In this document: in pieces, positions 5,063 through 15,793 of the stretch
Numbering within the stretch: position 1 is the first letter of the stretch
Layout: each line of letters begins with the position of its first letter
Source: a virus
IMG/VR virus record: IMGVR_UViG_3300006754_000215
Location: 1-22,035 of that record
Reading direction: 5' to 3' (one strand)
DNA: 22,035 nucleotides
Position numbers and translations under genes: made by a program
The notes under the pieces: generated by a model
The model's input: only the letters and a program-made list of their open reading frames with translations
Databases searched by the model: none
Told to the model about the DNA's origin: nothing

Positions 5063-5524
5063 ATGACAAGAATACTTGTAAAGCCAACACATCTCAACCG
5101 AGATGAATTTTTAACACCATTTGATAAAATTTTTGATGAACTGATGAGTAAGACATTTCCTACTTTTAAAGAAGAAGTTGGAGTATCTTTTAATCAAGGT
5201 TCTTATCCTAAAGTGAATGTGTATGAATATGATGACAAGATTGGTATCATAGCAGAGATTCCTGGATTGGATAAGAAGGATGTTACTGTTGATGTTGAGG
5301 ATGATATCCTTACTATATCAGGTGATAAGCATGGATTTAAAGATGGTGGAGTTAAATGTATAACGCGTGAATTAAAGCAATCATCATTTAAGAGATCTTT
5401 TAATCTTGGTGATCATTTGGATGGAGATGATATAAGTGCTTCATTCAAAGATGGGTTGTTATCTATATCAATTCCAAAGAAAGAACCGGAATCGCCCAAG
5501 AAGAAATTTGTTAAAATTTCCTAG
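5063..5524 (+). CDS. Small heat-shock protein, Hsp20/alpha-crystallin family
   Basis: A 153-residue ATP-independent holdase-type chaperone. A short N-terminal region with FDKIFDELM is followed by an alpha-crystallin domain at about residues 48-140. The domain holds EIPGLDKKDVTVDVEDDIL and ends in the classic signature ASFKDGLLSISIPKK. Hsp20 genes are common in marine T4-like phages, where they are thought to assist capsid or protein folding under infection stress. An AGGAG site lies 7 bases before the ATG. The stop codon overlaps the GTG start of the next gene by one base, so the two are probably translated together. Confidence 0.9.
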   Translation: MTRILVKPTHLNRDEFLTPFDKIFDELMSKTFPTFKEEVGVSFNQGSYPKVNVYEYDDKIGIIAEIPGLDKKDVTVDVEDDILTISGDKHGFKDGGVKCITRELKQSSFKRSFNLGDHLDGDDISASFKDGLLSISIPKKEPESPKKKFVKIS

Positions 5525-5715
5525 TGGAGAAAATAGAATATAATGATACATTATATATTGTTTATGGCAAAGTGCCTATAACAACAGAATTATCTATTGA
5601 GGAATTAAGAAAAGGTTATAATACTGATATTATTTTGCGTAAGGATAATTTATATTATATGTGTGATGAGATAATTGAAGCTGAGTTTGAAGAGATTCCA
5701 AAGGTAGATAAATAA
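5524..5715 (+). CDS. Small acidic protein of unknown function (GTG start)
   Basis: A 63-residue acidic protein beginning at GTG 5524, which shares its first base with the TAG stop of the Hsp20 gene. Reinitiation after Hsp20 is the likely way it is translated. It contains several aromatic and acidic stretches (LYIVYGKVPITTELSIEEL, IIEAEFEEIPK) and may form a small beta-rich domain. I recognise no motif. The tight overlap and the following terminator-like hairpin support a real two-gene unit with hsp20. Confidence 0.5.
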   Translation: MEKIEYNDTLYIVYGKVPITTELSIEELRKGYNTDIILRKDNLYYMCDEIIEAEFEEIPKVDK

Positions 5716-5735
5716 GGTTACATTATAAGTTATAG

Positions 5736-5760
5736 CGGGGTTTTATTTTATAAAACCCTG
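5736..5760 (+). terminator. Terminator-like hairpin after the hsp20 unit
   Basis: CGGGGTTTTA (5736-5745) pairs over 10 positions with TAAAACCCTG (5751-5760), with one G-T wobble and a 5-base loop. The following TTGTAATTTC is only moderately T-rich, so termination efficiency is uncertain. It separates the hsp20 unit from the promoter at 5800-5829. Confidence 0.6.
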
Positions 5761-5799
5761 TTGTAATTTCACATTGGGAAAAATAATTAAAAAAAGTTC

Positions 5800-5829
5800 T
5801 TGTTTTATATGTATATACCGTTGTATATT
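5800..5829 (+). promoter_or_regulatory. Sigma70-like promoter, copy 3
   Basis: TTGTTT at 5800-5805 and TATATT at 5824-5829 with the same 18-base spacer and GTTGTATATTA box as the other copies. The -35 element is weaker (TTGTTT instead of TTGACT). It precedes the operon from the zinc-ribbon gene through IMPDH. Confidence 0.7.
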
Positions 5830-5877
5830 ATAATATGAGAAAAATCAAAATAAATAATAAAAAAAAGAAGTCATTTA

Positions 5878-6297
5878 ATGAATAATAAAAAAGAAAGTTA
5901 TTTAAGTTTTGTAGAAAAGGGTCAACGTTATATGCAATGTAAGAGCTGTCATGATTATATTGAAGTTGATAATGATGTAACTGCTATAACTTGTTCAAGA
6001 TGTACATCTATACTATGTTTAAAGGCTATGCCACTAGACGAAATGTTACCATCATTAAATAAAAATAAAATAAGTGGTCGACCAGCCGGTTGGCATTTTA
6101 TGAAAGAGTATGTTGACAAAGATGGTAATGTGTTTCACAAAGGAAAAGAACAAACTGAATTAAAGGGAACACTTAAACCTACTAAAGTGAAACCACCGAA
6201 GAAGAGAAAGAAAAAGAAATTAACAGCAGACCAAAAATTATTCAAAGAAGTTAAAGAATATAAAAAACGAAAAAAGCTAAGGAAAAAAACCAAATGA
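5878..6297 (+). CDS. Zinc-ribbon protein with basic tail
   Basis: A 139-residue protein. Four cysteines in two CxxC pairs (CKSC near residue 21 and CSRC near 39, with a further Cys at about 46) look like a zinc ribbon. The middle segment GRPAGWHFMKEYVDKDGNVF is of a kind I associate with T4-like marine phages. The last 45 residues are extremely rich in Lys and Arg (PPKKRKKKKLTADQ), fitting nucleic-acid or ribosome binding. It is first in a probable operon behind promoter copy 3 and overlaps the next gene as ATGA. The role is unknown; a small transcription or RNA-binding factor is plausible. Confidence 0.6.
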   Translation: MNNKKESYLSFVEKGQRYMQCKSCHDYIEVDNDVTAITCSRCTSILCLKAMPLDEMLPSLNKNKISGRPAGWHFMKEYVDKDGNVFHKGKEQTELKGTLKPTKVKPPKKRKKKKLTADQKLFKEVKEYKKRKKLRKKTK

Positions 6298-6902
6298 TAA
6301 TTACAGAAATATCAAAGTTACAAACAATATGTGAAGAAGTTTCTTCAATTGAAGAGGGTGAAGAAATTGGAGCACAATTACTTAAAGTGTTAGCTGAATC
6401 TAAAAATGGAATTGGATTAGCAGCAAATCAAATTGGTATTAACAAACAAGTCTGTGTTGTTAATGTTAAAAAACCGATTGTATTGATTAATCCGCGAATT
6501 GTAGAACAATCAGAAGATACATTTGTGTTTCCAGAAGGTTGTTTATCATTTCCAAATAAACATATTAGAACAACACGATTCGTTGAAGTTATAGTTGAAG
6601 CTGATAATCACAAAGGACAATTATCTTTCTCAGCTGATAGTAATAATATGAATGATGCTTTTGAATGTGCTTGTGTTCAGCATGAGATGGATCATTTATC
6701 TGGAGTCACAATGTTTGATAGAGAATGGAAACAAAAACCATATAGAGCACCAAAGAAATTTGGTCGTAATGAGAGAGTTATGATTACGAATGGTAAAGAA
6801 TCAAAAGAGATTAAATACAAAAAAGCAGAACCATTAATAGCTTCAGGTAAGTGGGAGATTTATACACCAGCTATGGTTGAACCTGGTTCTTATGGAAAAT
6901 AA
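6294..6902 (+). CDS. def: Peptide deformylase
   Basis: A 202-residue metalloenzyme that removes the formyl group from the N-terminal methionine of new proteins. All three family motifs are intact: GIGLAANQIG (residues 39-48), EGCLS (81-85) and QHEMDH (129-134). Cys83, His130 and His134 should bind the metal, and Glu131 should be catalytic. About 65 residues follow the HEMDH motif (including PYRAPKKFGRNERVMI), making it longer than the compact deformylases known from some phages. The start overlaps the previous stop (ATGA), implying coupling. Marine phages are thought to use their own deformylase to keep up with the burst of phage or photosystem protein synthesis. Confidence 0.92.
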   Translation: MIITEISKLQTICEEVSSIEEGEEIGAQLLKVLAESKNGIGLAANQIGINKQVCVVNVKKPIVLINPRIVEQSEDTFVFPEGCLSFPNKHIRTTRFVEVIVEADNHKGQLSFSADSNNMNDAFECACVQHEMDHLSGVTMFDREWKQKPYRAPKKFGRNERVMITNGKESKEIKYKKAEPLIASGKWEIYTPAMVEPGSYGK

Positions 6903-6915
6903 ATAGTAAGATTAT

Positions 6916-7290
6916 ATGAAAATGGCATTAATTGTTACTTTAGGTAATACCATGCAGGGAGTTACAACTACCACTACTATTAATAAAGATGATGTTATAT
7001 ATCAATTTGTGGGAACATTTATTAAAAATCCCACCCGCACTTCAATACAAGTTGGTAAAAAACAACATGTAGAGGATGCGTTAGGAAGATATATAAATCA
7101 TAGTTGTACTCCTAATATTAAGATAGTTAAAGAAGATAAAATTATAAAGTTAATTGCTATTAAAGATATACAAGAAGGACAAGAAATAACATTTGATTAT
7201 AATAGTACTGAATGGAAATTGTTTCATCCTTTTAAATGTAATTGTCATGGTATATTAATAACAGGTAAATATTACAAGGTAAAAGATTAA
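6916..7290 (+). CDS. SET-domain protein (putative lysine methyltransferase)
   Basis: A 124-residue compact SET domain. Diagnostic motifs are GRYINHSCTPN (residues 57-67), which forms the SAM-binding pseudoknot, and GQEITFDYN (88-96) with the conserved catalytic-site tyrosine. A short post-SET-like FKCNC (106-110) follows. SET enzymes transfer methyl groups from SAM to protein lysines. The substrate-recognition part is minimal, so the target could be a host or phage protein such as a ribosomal or DNA-binding protein, but this cannot be read here. It lies 13 bases after the deformylase gene and abuts the IMPDH N-terminal gene with no gap, so all are probably one transcript. Confidence 0.8.
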   Translation: MKMALIVTLGNTMQGVTTTTTINKDDVIYQFVGTFIKNPTRTSIQVGKKQHVEDALGRYINHSCTPNIKIVKEDKIIKLIAIKDIQEGQEITFDYNSTEWKLFHPFKCNCHGILITGKYYKVKD

Positions 7291-8118
7291 ATGAAAGAAT
7301 GTTTAACTTATGATGATGTTGGTATTAAGCCATTATTAAGTGATATAAAACATCGTGAAGATTGTAATACAATAACAAGAGTTACAAAAAATGTTTATTT
7401 AGATATACCGATTGTTTCATCACCTATGGATACTGTTACAGATTATAAAATGTGTTTGGAGATGGATAGACTTGGTGGTATGGGTTTTTTACATAGATTT
7501 AAATCATCACATAAAATTGCAAAAACAATACGATGGTTTAGAAATGAAAAACCTGACGGAACTATTGGTGCATCAATAGGTGTAACTGGTGATTATTTAA
7601 AACAAGCACAATTATATGTTTATAGTGGAGCACAAATTATACTTATAGATGTAGCACATGGTCATCATATATTAGTTAAAGAAGCTATGGAGAAAATAAA
7701 AAATGAAGTTAAAGGACAATTTGATTTATTGGTGGGAAACATTGCAACGAAAGAAGCTGCAAAAGACCTTTGTGAATGGGGTGCGGATGGTTTACGAATT
7801 GGTATCGGCGGCGGTTGTTTTACTCCCGGTATGGAAGTTTTAACTGATAATGGATTAAAAAGAATAATTGATATTGAATTAAATGATATGGTTTATACAC
7901 ATACAGGTGAATTAAAACCTGTAATAAATAAATTAGAATTTGATAGAGATGAAGAAATCATTGAAATAAATGATATAGAATGTACAAAAAATCACGAATT
8001 TTATGTTATACATAAAAAATATAAAGATGTTGTTGATGATGATAATTTGGATAAATATGCTGAATGGGTAGAAGCTGATAATTTAACTGATGATTATTTT
8101 CTTGTAGAAATTTCGTAG
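7291..8118 (+). CDS. guaB: IMP dehydrogenase N-terminal half fused to N-half of a split intein
   Basis: A 275-residue precursor. Residues 1-175 are the first half of IMP dehydrogenase (IMP + NAD+ to XMP, the committed step of GMP synthesis): LTYDDV (5-10), IVSSPMDTVT (41-50), IGASIGV (92-98), IDVAHGHH (119-126), LVGNIAT (147-153) and GIGGG (171-175). The regulatory CBS pair that normally interrupts the barrel is absent. At Cys176 the frame turns into an intein N-half of 100 residues, ending at TAG 8116-8118. The rest of the enzyme is encoded at 9019-9639. Protein trans-splicing would give an enzyme of 175 + 166 = 341 residues. The GIGGG end sits two residues before the catalytic cysteine, so neither half could be active alone. 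GMP reductase is the nearest alternative, but the motifs favour IMPDH. Confidence 0.9.
   Translation: MKECLTYDDVGIKPLLSDIKHREDCNTITRVTKNVYLDIPIVSSPMDTVTDYKMCLEMDRLGGMGFLHRFKSSHKIAKTIRWFRNEKPDGTIGASIGVTGDYLKQAQLYVYSGAQIILIDVAHGHHILVKEAMEKIKNEVKGQFDLLVGNIATKEAAKDLCEWGADGLRIGIGGGCFTPGMEVLTDNGLKRIIDIELNDMVYTHTGELKPVINKLEFDRDEEIIEINDIECTKNHEFYVIHKKYKDVVDDDNLDKYAEWVEADNLTDDYFLVEIS
7816..8115 (+). other. Split intein N-fragment (IMPDH-1 type), 100 residues
   Basis: This begins with the nucleophile Cys (TGT 7816-7818) in CFTPGMEVLTDNGLKRI, the block A of inteins. It carries the block B TKNH within IECTKNHEFYVI and ends at a stop codon with no endonuclease domain. It matches in layout and sequence style the IMPDH-1 split inteins described from marine metagenomes. 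The His of TKNH normally assists the N-S acyl shift. Confidence 0.92.
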
Positions 8119-8135
8119 TTTTTTCTATTTTATTG

Positions 8136-8143
8136 ATATTTAT
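8136..8143 (+). promoter_or_regulatory. ATATTTAT motif upstream of the homing endonuclease
   Basis: ATATTTAT lies in the 68-base gap after the N-half gene, 43 bases before the endonuclease ATG. If this is a late-type promoter, the endonuclease would have its own expression timing, separate from the IMPDH operon. Confidence 0.35.
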
Positions 8144-8186
8144 TATTGGAATTGAAGGTGGTATATTATGATTTTGGAGATAATAA

Positions 8187-9068
8187 ATGTCAAAGATAAT
8201 TAAAAAATGTAAAGAATGTAAAGAATGTAATAATGAATTTGAGAGTTATATTAAAGCTAATAAAAAGTTTTGTAATAAAAAATGTTATGGTAAATTTATG
8301 AATGGTGAAGGGAATCCTTTTTATGGTAAAACACATACGGATAAAACAAAACAAACAATTGGTAAAAAAAATTCAATAAATATGATGGGTAAGAATAATC
8401 ATTTTTATGGTAAACATCATAGCGAAAAATCTATTGAAAAAATAAAACAAAATATGCCAGATATGAATGGAGAAAATAATCATTTTTACGGTAAAACTCA
8501 TACACCAGAAACTTCTAAATTTATTTCAGAAATAAATAAAGAATTATGGAAAGATGATGAATATAGAGAAAAACAAAGTAAAGCTTTTAGTGAAGGTCAA
8601 AAGAAATCAAGAGATAAAAATCCAGAATACTATTCAGAAATAAAAAGAAAAGCTGGGTCGGTCAGTCATCATAATCAACATAGATATAAAAAGAATAACC
8701 CAGAAAAGAAATTTGAGAAGATATTAAATGATAATAAAATTGAATATGATTATTCACCAGTAATAAGTGAATATCAATATGATTTTAAGATTAAAAATAA
8801 AAGGATATTGATTGAAATTGATGGTGATTATTGGCATAGTAATCCTAAATTCTATAATGAAGATGGTAGTAATGGTAGAAGGAAATTAAATAATATCCAA
8901 ATAAATAAAAAGAAAAAAGATAAAAAAAAGGAAGAATCTGCAGATAAACATGATTTTAAGTTGATTAGAATATGGGAATCTGATTTAGATAATGATAATT
9001 TAATACAAGAGGTTTTAGATGAAATTCAAACTTACGAAAATAAAATCAATAAAGAAAAAACAATATAA
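8187..9068 (+). CDS. Free-standing homing endonuclease, NUMOD3 repeats plus Vsr-like (EDxHD) nuclease
   Basis: A 293-residue protein with a GGAG site before the ATG. The N-terminus has five cysteines (8, 11, 14, 29, 33) of a likely zinc finger. Three NUMOD3 DNA-binding motifs follow, each built around N(P/H)FYGK(T/H)H, at about 43-54, 71-82 and 98-109. The C-terminal domain (about 172-270) is related to Vsr-type and EDxHD endonucleases: YDFKI, then IEIDGDYWH (209-217) with Glu210, Asp212 and His217 as likely catalytic residues, then FKLIRIWESDL. It lies between the two halves of the split-intein IMPDH gene and presumably cuts intein-free alleles to spread the locus. Its last 50 bases overlap the C-half gene in another frame. 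Confidence 0.88.
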   Translation: MSKIIKKCKECKECNNEFESYIKANKKFCNKKCYGKFMNGEGNPFYGKTHTDKTKQTIGKKNSINMMGKNNHFYGKHHSEKSIEKIKQNMPDMNGENNHFYGKTHTPETSKFISEINKELWKDDEYREKQSKAFSEGQKKSRDKNPEYYSEIKRKAGSVSHHNQHRYKKNNPEKKFEKILNDNKIEYDYSPVISEYQYDFKIKNKRILIEIDGDYWHSNPKFYNEDGSNGRRKLNNIQINKKKKDKKKEESADKHDFKLIRIWESDLDNDNLIQEVLDEIQTYENKINKEKTI

Positions 9069-9138
9069 GGGAAAAGTTTATGACCTTACAATTGAAAAAG
9101 ACCATTCATACAATATCAATGGTATCATCGTCCATAAT
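9019..9138 (+). other. Split intein C-fragment, 40 residues
   Basis: Forty residues from ATG 9019, containing block F/G: KGKVYDLTIEKDHSYNING followed by IIVHN. The penultimate His39 and terminal Asn40 (AAT 9136-9138) are intact, and the next codon is TCA, the Ser +1 nucleophile required for trans-esterification. All residues expected for trans-splicing with the N-fragment at 7816 are therefore present. Confidence 0.92.
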
Positions 9139-9639
9139 TCACTTTGTAGCACAAGGATTCAAACTGGTGTGGGAATACCTATGGTTAGTTCCATTCTTGA
9201 TTGCGTTTCTGTCGCTGACATTTACGATGTTCCTTGTATTGTTGATGGTGGGATTAGGAGTCCTGGCGATGTATGCAAAGGATTGGGTGCGGGAGCGGAC
9301 GCAGTAATGTTAGGTTCTCTTTTATCTGGAACAAAAGAAAGTCCGGGTGAGATAACGAAATCGGGTAAATGGCCCAATGAGATTTTACAAAAGAAATATC
9401 GTGGTAGTGCTTCACTTGATAGTAAAAAAGATAGAGGCGAAACAAAGAATGTTGAAGGTTCTAGTCGTTATGTAAATTATAAAGGTAAGGTAAAACGAAT
9501 TATTAATGATATAATGGATGGTGTTTGTTCTTCAATGAGTTATGTCGGAGCTGATAATATTAGTGAATTTCATAGTAATGTTAGTTTCATTAAAGTTACT
9601 AATGCTGGAATAGTTGAAGCTAAACCACATCTTTTATAA
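9019..9639 (+). CDS. guaB: Split intein C-half fused to IMP dehydrogenase C-terminal half
   Basis: A 206-residue precursor: 40 residues of intein C-fragment, then 166 residues of IMPDH starting SLCSTRIQTGVGIP. Cys43 here is the catalytic cysteine of the IMPDH loop (canonical GxGSxCTTR). Further IMPDH motifs are VDGGIRSPGDVCKGLGAGAD, VMLGSLLSGT and a YRG-S flap region, then YKGKVK and MSYVGA near the end. The start ATG lies inside the endonuclease gene, with an AGAGG site at 9008-9012 and a 6-base spacing, so the two proteins are probably translationally coupled. Joined to the N-half it restores a complete CBS-free enzyme. GMP made this way would feed phage DNA and RNA synthesis. Confidence 0.9.
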   Translation: MKFKLTKIKSIKKKQYKGKVYDLTIEKDHSYNINGIIVHNSLCSTRIQTGVGIPMVSSILDCVSVADIYDVPCIVDGGIRSPGDVCKGLGAGADAVMLGSLLSGTKESPGEITKSGKWPNEILQKKYRGSASLDSKKDRGETKNVEGSSRYVNYKGKVKRIINDIMDGVCSSMSYVGADNISEFHSNVSFIKVTNAGIVEAKPHLL

Positions 9640-10064: not shown

Positions 10065-10398
10065 GGGGATGAGTTTGGTTTCGATTGGTGTTTTTAGGTA
10101 TAAAAATACAAGTAGTATGATTGACTTAAACAATCAACAGCTAGTAATAACTGGCAATTATAACACATACAATGTAGCCTACGCGTAGGTTACCATCACC
10201 CTTTAACTCCGATAGAAGATAAGGTGGTGTCATAATCGGAAGAACCATCGTAAGTTAAGCAAATCTCAATCTCGATGTAAAATAACGAATTGTCTGGAAA
10301 GCGGACTTTGTTGGTGGGAAAGAAACCAAATAAACTTGTGAATAATTTTTATATTAATGGATATCAAGACCTGAGTTCGAGTCTCAGCATCTCCACCA
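10065..10398 (+). ncRNA. ssrA: tmRNA (transfer-messenger RNA), one-piece
   Basis: The 334-base element starts GGGGATG (10065-10071), which pairs with CATCTCC (10388-10394), followed by discriminator A and encoded CCA (10396-10398). The third acceptor pair is G-U, the alanine identity element. GGTTTCGATTGG (10078-10089) corresponds to the conserved 5' tmRNA segment. The T arm is perfect: CTGAG / TTCGAGT / CTCAG at 10371-10387. Hairpin GATTG/CAATC (10119-10135) could be part of PK1. TAGTA (10142-10146) then precedes the likely resume codon ATA 10147, giving the tag ITGNYNTYNVAYA and stop TAG 10186-10188. The stop lies in a hairpin (10174-10193), as in helix 5 of known tmRNAs. The molecule rescues stalled ribosomes and tags the peptides. 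SmpB is not encoded in the window, so the host's would be used. Confidence 0.92.
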
Positions 10399-14021: not shown

Positions 14022-15182
14022 TTGAGTTTAATTAATAATTTTTTTGAAGTAACAGATGAATTTGATTTCGATAAAGAAAAGCAAAACTTTATTGATAATT
14101 TAGATATGTTAAAATTGATGTCTGTTCAGGAACAAACTTTATATAAGAAATGGCAAGAGTTTAATAAAGATGAATATAAGATGAGAACTAAAGCTCATAA
14201 GTTTAATACTATCAGATCGAAGTTGTGGAAACCAACTGACATTTATAATTATGATTTAACTGTTTCAGAAATAGAAGCTCTAGATCCAGTTGTTGAATTT
14301 ACAGAAGATGCGAAGACTTGGACTTTGGTTAGGAAATTAATTCATACAATGGATTGGAATGCTAATCCAGGTCGTAATCAAAAGTATTATGTTAAAGATA
14401 AAATTACAGGTAAAATACTTGGATTGATTTCATTGGGTTCAGATGTTACATCAATTAAAGTTAGAGATGATTATATTAAGTGGACAAAAGATAATAAGTT
14501 TGTTGACCATAAATTAAATAATACAGCTATAGCTTCTACTATTGTTTGTGTTCAGCCATTAGGTTTTAATATGTTAGGTGGAAAATTAATTGCAGCTCTT
14601 ACTACTGTTTCAGATGTTAGAGAGCAATGGAAGAAAGATTATGACGATATTCTTGTTGGTTTAACTACAACATCTCTTTATGGTGCTCATTCTCAATACA
14701 ATGGAATCCCACATTGGAAAACACTTGGTGAATCTGCTGGTAAGATTATGATTAAACCTGATGATTCAGTTTATCTTATTTGGAATAAATGGTTGAAAGA
14801 AAATCATTTTGAAGAACATAAGAAGGCTGTTGAGGCTACAGGTCCAAAACAAAATGTTATCAATAGAGTATTTAGACATCTTGGTATTAAAGGTAAAGAT
14901 TATGAACATGGATTTAAGAGAGGAGTTTATTTTGCTAATATGTACGACAATGGTTTAGAATATCTACGAAATGAAATTGATGATGGTGATTTGATAATGA
15001 AAAAAAGATCTTGTTTAGATTATAAATATGTTGTAAATTGGTGGAAGAGAAAAGCAATTAGAAGATATACAAAGATGTTTGAAGATAAAAGAATTAAACC
15101 AGAAGTATTATTTTATGGGGATGTGGTTGGGATGACTTGGGATGAATGTAAAGAAAAATATATAAGTGAGGTTGGTAGATAA
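14022..15182 (+). CDS. DUF4338 (DruA-like) protein
   Basis: A 386-residue protein starting at TTG 14022, with an AGAGG site 8 bases upstream. The conserved region, about residues 95-245, resembles the DUF4338 family, which includes DruA of the Druantia anti-phage systems. Visible blocks are KYYVKDKITGKILGLISLGS (121-140), RDDYIKW (148-154), HKLNNTAIASTIV (163-175), QPLGFNMLGGKLIAAL (178-193), TTTSLYG (215-221) and WKTLGESAGKI (232-242). The start and end regions are lysine-rich and helical. In Druantia the protein acts with large helicase partners, none of which are here. The TAATG overlap with the Mom-like gene implies a joint role, perhaps in phage DNA modification or protection. The family match is from recognised motifs, not a search. 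Confidence 0.7.
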   Translation: MSLINNFFEVTDEFDFDKEKQNFIDNLDMLKLMSVQEQTLYKKWQEFNKDEYKMRTKAHKFNTIRSKLWKPTDIYNYDLTVSEIEALDPVVEFTEDAKTWTLVRKLIHTMDWNANPGRNQKYYVKDKITGKILGLISLGSDVTSIKVRDDYIKWTKDNKFVDHKLNNTAIASTIVCVQPLGFNMLGGKLIAALTTVSDVREQWKKDYDDILVGLTTTSLYGAHSQYNGIPHWKTLGESAGKIMIKPDDSVYLIWNKWLKENHFEEHKKAVEATGPKQNVINRVFRHLGIKGKDYEHGFKRGVYFANMYDNGLEYLRNEIDDGDLIMKKRSCLDYKYVVNWWKRKAIRRYTKMFEDKRIKPEVLFYGDVVGMTWDECKEKYISEVGR

Positions 15183-15793
15183 TGAAGGTTACAGATTTTA
15201 CAGTAGACCCAGTACCACATAATCAAATAAAATGGTTTGTTAAGAAACATCATTATTCTGGTAGTACAAGAGGAATACATATATCCTATTGTTTTGGATT
15301 ATTTAAAGAAAGTGATTTTGGATTATCAAGAATGATTGGAACTATGATATATGGAATACCAGCTATGCCTGATGTTAGTAAAAAATATTGTCCTGATAAT
15401 CCAGATATTGTTTTGGAATTAAATAGATTATGTTGTATAGATGACACTCCAACAAATACTGAAAGTTATTTTATAGGACAAACTTTTAAATGGTTGAAAA
15501 AAAATACTAAATATAAGGTTATTATTTCTTTTGCAGATACTGCTCAAGGACATGAAGGTATAATATATAAAGCTACTAATTTTATTCATAGTGGTATGAC
15601 AACTGGTGCTAAAGCATTGATGGTTGATGGTGAAAGATATCATCAGAGAATGTTAACTAAAAAATGTCCTAAAGGAGATGAGATTAGAAAAAGAATTAAA
15701 GATAAAGATGAGAATATTTGGACTGAGCTACTTCCACCAAAACATATTTATGTTTATTATTTGGATAAAAGAATGAAAAGGAAATATAATTAA
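15182..15793 (+). CDS. mom: Mom-like DNA adenine modification protein
   Basis: A 203-residue protein of the Mom family. In phage Mu, Mom converts adenine in DNA to an acetamido-adenine derivative that blocks many restriction enzymes. Mom-family features visible are WFVKKHHYSGS (19-29), GMIYG-type strand GTMIYGIPAMP near 57-67, VLELNRLCCIDDTPTNTES around 80-98, and a GNAT-like end IISFADTAQGHEGIIYKATN around 118-137 followed by HSGMTTGA. The start overlaps the DruA-like stop codon (TAATG), and the stop overlaps the next gene the same way. A second Mom-like C-terminus lies at the left edge of the window. DNA modification is inferred from family; the modified base is not known here. Confidence 0.7.
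   Translation: MKVTDFTVDPVPHNQIKWFVKKHHYSGSTRGIHISYCFGLFKESDFGLSRMIGTMIYGIPAMPDVSKKYCPDNPDIVLELNRLCCIDDTPTNTESYFIGQTFKWLKKNTKYKVIISFADTAQGHEGIIYKATNFIHSGMTTGAKALMVDGERYHQRMLTKKCPKGDEIRKRIKDKDENIWTELLPPKHIYVYYLDKRMKRKYN

What the first reader, a model, noticed from the sequence alone, without database searches (positions are those of the whole stretch)
7291..9639. Fractured IMP dehydrogenase gene: split intein with a free-standing homing endonuclease between the halves
The enzyme is coded as an N-half ending in a 100-residue intein N-fragment and a C-half starting with a 40-residue intein C-fragment. A separate NUMOD3/Vsr-like endonuclease gene lies between them. Cys1, TKNH, HN and Ser+1 are all present, so trans-splicing should restore a 341-residue enzyme. 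The arrangement matches the fractured genes and IMPDH-1 split inteins described from marine metagenomes. Seeing it inside a phage with gp55, PhoH and a tmRNA gives it a genome context.
Basis: partly seen in the sequence, partly recalled or inferred. Interest (0 to 1): 0.88.

Follow-up and report, generated by a model that had tools for sequence, protein, structure and literature searches.

The report
Phage enzyme gene broken by split intein
A phage enzyme is encoded in two pieces that a self-excising protein tag should stitch back together, with a DNA-cutting 'selfish' gene in the break; this layout was known, but close phage relatives with and without the insert show how it arrives, how its cutter decays, and that the cutter seems to carry a copy of its own target just upstream.

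Summary
Observation confirmed. The N-half (7291-8118) ends in a 100-aa intein N-fragment; a separate EDxHD/Vsr-fold NUMOD3 endonuclease gene (HEG, 8187-9068) follows; the C-half (9019-9639) starts with a 40-aa intein C-fragment. The joined exteins make a 341-aa IMPDH/GMP-reductase-family enzyme (which of the two is unsettled). The layout is the known 'fractured gene': a new member of a known kind.

Added here: (1) relatives at 80-85% and 72% identity, some from the same samples, carry the uninterrupted gene, so the insertion is scarless and probably recent. (2) Related loci show full HEG, truncated HEG and a short HEG 3' stub with the gene still split; the C-half start codon lies inside the HEG 3' end in 15 of 17 loci, which would explain the stubs. 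(3) HEG leaders carry a decayed copy of the extein junction, the presumed homing site (window 8142-8171, p 0.0025; combined p about 1e-14, partly post hoc), and a hairpin covers the HEG start here, as for I-TevI.

Side find: L090, a GMP reductase in three pieces with its catalytic Cys on a 10-residue middle extein. Splicing, cleavage and autorepression are inferred, not shown.

The parts
7291..7815 (+). ExtN: N-terminal 175 residues of an IMPDH/GMP-reductase-family enzyme, ending ...RIGIGGG
   Evidence: Pfam PF00478 model 2-178, E 1e-42; 85% aa identity to the uninterrupted gene in L009
7816..8118 (+). IntN: 100-aa intein N-fragment (Cys1, TKNH block B) plus stop
   Evidence: profile of homologous split inteins E 6e-52, but the window is itself a row of that profile; C1 and T57-K58-N59-H60 invariant in 7 loci
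8133..8193 (+). RNA hairpin that would hide the HEG Shine-Dalgarno and ATG
   Evidence: z -2.69 and -2.85; comparable hairpins in L034 (z -4.7), L028 (-3.2), L061 (-5.8), L042 (-2.2)
8142..8171 (+). decayed copy of the uninterrupted extein junction (presumed HEG target) in the HEG leader; pseudo-insertion point 8162/8163
   Evidence: leave-one-out junction profile: score 6.6 vs shuffles -11.6 +- 4.9, p 0.0025, the floor of 400 shuffles (coordinates); pairwise test for the window alone not significant, p 0.32
8187..9068 (+). free-standing homing endonuclease gene: zinc-finger-like Cys, 3 NUMOD3 motifs, EDxHD/Vsr-fold nuclease
   Evidence: PF07460 E 3e-17; TIGR00632 vsr E 9e-7, below its cut-off; phmmer 3r3p E 0.0037; Foldseek 3r3p E 3.7e-5, Vsr next
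8682..8990 (+). nuclease catalytic domain of the HEG (residues about 166-268; conserved D199, E210, G213, H217, K248)
   Evidence: 16-sequence alignment; pLDDT mostly 93-97
9009..9013 (+). Shine-Dalgarno-like GAGGT for the C-half, inside the HEG coding sequence
   Evidence: SD-like matches of 4 or more bases before C-half starts: 67% vs 23% at other HEG-internal ATGs, Mann-Whitney p 1e-6
9019..9138 (+). IntC: 40-aa intein C-fragment ending HN; first 50 nt overlap the HEG 3' end
   Evidence: TIGR01443 above cut-off; overlap counted over 17 loci
9139..9639 (+). ExtC: C-terminal 166 residues, starting at Ser+1, SLCSTR (catalytic Cys at +3)
   Evidence: Pfam PF00478 model 178-345, E 2e-45; 80% aa identity to L009

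Best explanation
The locus is a mobile 'fractured gene'. The enzyme is translated as two precursors. IntN and IntC associate and trans-splice (Cys1 and Ser+1 nucleophiles, Asn cyclisation at HN), joining GGG to SLC and restoring the loop that holds the catalytic cysteine. The gene between them encodes an EDxHD homing endonuclease that most likely cuts intein-free alleles at the conserved catalytic-loop sequence; repair from the intein-bearing phage in a co-infection would copy IntN-HEG-IntC into the cut gene. The C-half start codon, and here an SD-like motif, lie inside the HEG 3' end, so the HEG can be lost only upstream of that point and the gene stays split. The HEG is probably held low by a hairpin over its start and possibly by binding a decoy copy of its own target upstream, as I-TevI does. 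Shown by sequence: the parts, their conservation, empty alleles, HEG stubs, the overlap, the junction-like leader sequence. Inferred: splicing, cleavage, homing, autorepression.
For: Parts and families. Same insertion site, Cys1, TKNH and HN in the related IMPDH/GMPR loci. Uninterrupted alleles at 80-85% (L009, L008) and 72% identity (L143-L145); L009 and L144 come from sample 3300025141 and L145 from 3300025131, the two samples that hold the intein-bearing contigs. Window and L009 are sisters at 100/100 in the extein tree, while IntN identity to the window usually exceeds extein identity in other loci, as expected of a mobile intein. HEG decay with the split kept: L062 (full HEG) and L057 (stub) have identical inteins; stubs in L074, L017, L015, L012, L057 at E 1e-9 to 1e-24. 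C-half start inside the HEG gene in 15 of 17 loci. Junction copy in HEG leaders and hairpins, matching the reviewed I-TevI operator and hairpin control (PMC2988022). IntN profile found no relative in 84,980 cellular species genomes at that scan's sensitivity.
Against: No expression, splicing or cleavage data. The published IMPDH-1 sequence and the Dassa 2009 paper could not be read here, so identity with IMPDH-1 rests on memory. The junction-copy idea arose from looking at most of the leaders later tested; the window's pairwise test alone is not significant, and its profile p is at the floor of 400 shuffles. No sigma-70 promoter excess and no T4 late-promoter box in the region. The HEG could be inactive.
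Confidence: 0.85

Rival explanations
1. The two halves do not splice; they assemble non-covalently, as in split NrdA of phage Aeh1, or the gene is dead.
For: Split phage enzymes that work without splicing exist (PMC2988022). Splicing was not assayed.
Against: Splicing residues are kept across divergent loci. The break falls in the catalytic loop. Inteins persist after HEG loss, identical in L057 and L062, which suggests selection on splicing, although that pair may simply be recent.
Confidence: 0.08
2. The junction copy in the HEG leader is only a relic of how the HEG first inserted (for example at an empty extein site), not an operator.
For: It resembles both sides of the uninterrupted junction, mostly in the same orientation. 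DnaE loci show it too, partly on the other strand.
Against: It persists next to HEGs that share only 23-57% identity with the window's, where an unconstrained 30-bp relic should be gone; but repeated fresh insertions would also explain that.
Confidence: 0.35
3. The HEG targets a different sequence and is a passenger that landed in an already split intein.
For: HEG types differ between loci at the same split point: Vsr-type subgroups, L090 without a Pfam nuclease hit (HNH-like by eye), methyltransferase-like ORF plus HEG in L067.
Against: Leaders resemble their own family's extein junction more than the other family's (Wilcoxon p 6e-4).
Confidence: 0.15

Closest known systems
Fractured genes / IMPDH-1 split intein (Dassa et al. 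2009, doi 10.1093/nar/gkp095; not readable here; content from memory)
   Same: enzyme gene broken by a split intein, free-standing Vsr-like HEG between the halves, IMPDH-family host gene, intein split near residue 100
   Different: here with intein-free alleles from the same samples, HEG stubs, the C-half start inside the HEG, and a junction copy in the HEG leader; whether the 2009 paper noted any of these could not be checked
EDxHD homing endonuclease I-Bth0305I (PDB 3r3p; PMC3943268)
   Same: predicted nuclease fold and conserved acidic/His residues; NUMOD DNA-binding region
   Different: lies between intein halves rather than in a group I intron; target and activity untested
Split PolB intein of phage MIJ3 (PMC6892783)
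   Same: phage gene split by an intein with a HEG gene between the halves
   Different: PolB and an HNH HEG
I-TevI operator and RBS hairpin (PMC2988022)
   Same: homing-site-like sequence and RBS-hiding hairpin just upstream of the HEG
   Different: the I-TevI operator is proven and overlaps a late promoter; here no promoter was identified
mobE-split nrdA of phage Aeh1 (PMC2988022)
   Same: HEG insertion splits a nucleotide-metabolism gene
   Different: no intein; the halves work without splicing

Membership tests
Fractured gene with split intein | conserved enzyme coding region broken in two by intein N- and C-fragments | tested here: met
Fractured gene with split intein | free-standing endonuclease gene in the break | tested here: met
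Naturally split intein | Cys1, TxxH block B, HN terminus, Cys/Ser/Thr at +1 | tested here: met
Naturally split intein | trans-splicing activity | not testable with these tools
   needs co-expression
IMPDH-1 split intein | sequence match to the published IMPDH-1 fragments | not tested
   published sequence not available here; resemblance is from memory
EDxHD homing endonuclease | Vsr-like fold with conserved active-site residues | tested here: met
EDxHD homing endonuclease | site-specific cleavage of the intein-free allele | not testable with these tools
   needs a cleavage assay
IMP dehydrogenase (as against GMP reductase) | equivalog score above cut-off | tested here: not met
   TIGR01302 257 bits vs cut-off 481.5; no GMPR model reaches its cut-off either
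IMP dehydrogenase (as against GMP reductase) | Arg-Tyr dyad in the flap | tested here: inconclusive
   the DRY(F) stretch of 3khj aligns to a gap in the spliced sequence; the role of the dyad is from memory

The most novel reading that the evidence does not exclude
HEGs in fractured genes carry two built-in controls: a decoy copy of their own homing site upstream that represses them without being cut efficiently, and the start site of the C-half in their 3' end. The second makes the split hard to reverse and leaves a coding stub after the nuclease is lost.
Probability: 0.45. Interest if true: 0.72.

Novelty: new member of a known kind. Interest (0 to 1): 0.6.

Why it matters
How split inteins arise and why they stay split is open. 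This set of loci has the states side by side: empty alleles in the same samples, full HEG, truncated HEG, stub, and contiguous mini-inteins, with close pairs (L062/L057; L054/L055) that differ in state. It turns the question into ordinary bench tests and offers new split inteins for protein engineering.

Tried and rejected
Single frame or frameshift: 20 stops in the shared frame, and two further contigs with the same layout. Group I intron or other known RNA in the break: no Rfam hit except tmRNA. Promoters: sigma-70-like sites at chance level; TATAAATA at chance and absent from the region. Cellular origin: the IntN profile finds none in genome contigs; the C-half profile finds mostly other inteins plus one Patescibacteria MAG contig. 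State clustering on the trees: HEG/short-gap/cis labels are not clustered beyond shuffles, so the direction of cis-to-split change cannot be read from the tree. Hairpins are not general: weak or absent in L051, L056, L064, L016, L077, L090. L010 stub: E 2.9e-4, about the same as the best shuffled hit, so weak by score though in the expected place. Literature searches for a natural three-piece split-intein gene found none; absence from an open-access library is not proof.

Full report
Observation. The window is a whole 22,035-bp virus record. Joining the exteins at GGG^SLC gives 341 aa. The two halves share a frame but 20 stops lie between them. Two other contigs carry the same locus, with 0 and 1 differences over 2,349 bases, so an assembly slip is unlikely.

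What the parts are. Both halves match Pfam IMPDH (PF00478), meeting at model position 178. IntC passes the TIGR01443 cut-off. The HEG has three NUMOD3 stretches and a Vsr/DUF559-type nuclease region. Its predicted structure (mean pLDDT 84; 93-97 over most of the nuclease domain) matches the I-Bth0305I catalytic domain best and E. coli Vsr next. The enzyme cannot be assigned to IMPDH or GMP reductase: no equivalog cut-off is reached, and the DRY stretch of the IMPDH flap falls in a gap.

Empty alleles. L009 and L008 carry the uninterrupted gene at about 80-85% protein identity with a clean GGG|SLC junction. L143-L145 do so at 72% (identity given to L009's protein). L009 and L144 come from sample 3300025141 and L145 from 3300025131, the samples of the intein-bearing contigs. 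Window and L009 are sister rows at 100/100 in the extein tree. The simplest reading is a recent gain in the window's lineage, though loss in the others is possible.

Related loci. Searches with the intein profiles and a part-by-part scan found many more loci with inteins at the same site. Contiguous ORFs: L037, L052, L055, L070. Split with a HEG-sized gap: window, L016, L028, L034, L042, L051, L054, L056, L061, L062, L064, L067-L069, L073, L075, L077 and others. Split with a short or shrunken gap: L010, L012, L014, L015, L017, L057, L074. Intein identity to the window is usually higher than extein identity.

HEG stubs. The gap of L074, L017, L015, L012 and L057 still matches the HEG C-terminus at E 1e-9 to 1e-24; the best of the shuffled gaps scored 3.6e-4, and L010 (2.9e-4) is about at that level. 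Matched stretches run about 24-46 codons, or about 60 in L074. L062 and L057 have identical intein sequences, yet one has a full HEG and the other only the stub. In 15 of 17 HEG-bearing loci the C-half start lies inside the HEG gene (overlap 4-50 nt; L068 and L069 are the exceptions). SD-like matches before C-half starts exceed those at other ATGs in the HEGs (p 1e-6), although 8 of 24 starts have only a 3-base match. Deleting the HEG past its 3' end would remove the C-half start; this is my inference for why stubs remain.

Junction copy in the leader. Between IntN and the HEG, several loci read like the uninterrupted junction. I saw this by eye in most of the IMPDH leaders before testing. Pairwise alignment against dinucleotide shuffles gave combined p 1.8e-7 for IMPDH loci and 4e-5 for six DnaE loci with other HEGs. 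A leave-one-out profile gave combined p about 1e-14 for the non-redundant IMPDH leaders, with the window at p 0.0025, the floor of 400 shuffles. For the window and most others the opposite strand scores far lower, but L016, L061 and L064 also score high on the reverse strand. Leaders that I had not singled out beforehand are mixed: L077 strong, L067 and L069 near 0.06, L073 and L075 not significant. The signal is well supported for the set but partly post hoc.

Hairpin. The window leader folds over the HEG ribosome site and start (z -2.85); L034, L028, L061 and L042 have comparable folds, others do not. In T4, I-TevI has both an operator resembling its homing site and an RBS-hiding hairpin, and control elements of neighbouring genes embedded in HEGs are said to favour HEG retention (PMC2988022). 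That is the model I apply by analogy.

Known or new. The layout is the published fractured-gene arrangement; I know that paper's content only from memory because it is not held. IMPDH-1 is a known fast split intein (PMC7090010), and MIJ3 shows a split intein with a HEG in a named phage. I file the window as a new member of a known kind. The stub series, the overlap and the junction copy may add to it; whether the 2009 paper described any of them I could not check.

Three-piece gene. L090 reads as ExtN-IntN1, then IntC1-SACTTRFMTG-IntN2, then, after an endonuclease-like gene, IntC2-CGFPQL.... If both inteins splice, the catalytic Cys comes on a 10-residue middle extein. It rests on a single contig. 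L066, L086 and L097 also have middle pieces with an IntC and an IntN.

Noticed in passing
L090:1807-4570: GMP reductase encoded in three pieces by two split inteins, with a 10-residue middle extein (SACTTRFMTG) holding the catalytic Cys; one contig only.
   Followed up: partly
L066:66-2400: Middle piece IntC1 - about 54 aa extein - IntN2, followed by a nuclease-like ORF and IntC2; the contig starts inside the gene.
   Followed up: partly
L086, L097: DNA polymerase III alpha genes with a middle piece that carries an IntC and an IntN, implying two split inteins in one gene.
   Followed up: partly
L085, L091, L097 leaders: DnaE-type split loci also show a copy of their own extein junction near the HEG, on the opposite strand in L085 and L097.
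   Followed up: partly
L067:1978-5000: The break holds a DNA-methyltransferase-like ORF as well as a NUMOD3 HEG.
   Followed up: no
L015:439-1290, 5689-6732; L118: In-frame TGA codons, some where relatives have Trp, suggest that TGA may be read as sense (Trp) in these phages.
   Followed up: partly
L118 (Patescibacteria MAG contig JAIPJN010000030.1): A C-half with IntC preceded by a NUMOD3/Vsr-like HEG in a bacterial MAG, possibly a phage contig binned with it.
   Followed up: partly
L140:3464-4300: Intein N-fragment at the same site interrupted by a stop after CFIA; decayed intein or recoded stop.
   Followed up: no
window 6916-7290, 729-1172, 15182-15793, 6294-6902, 5063-5524: Unusual phage cargo: SET-domain protein, SufE-like protein, Mom-like DNA modification protein, peptide deformylase, Hsp20.
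   Followed up: partly
window 10065-10398: Phage tmRNA with predicted tag GNYNTYNVAYA.
   Followed up: no
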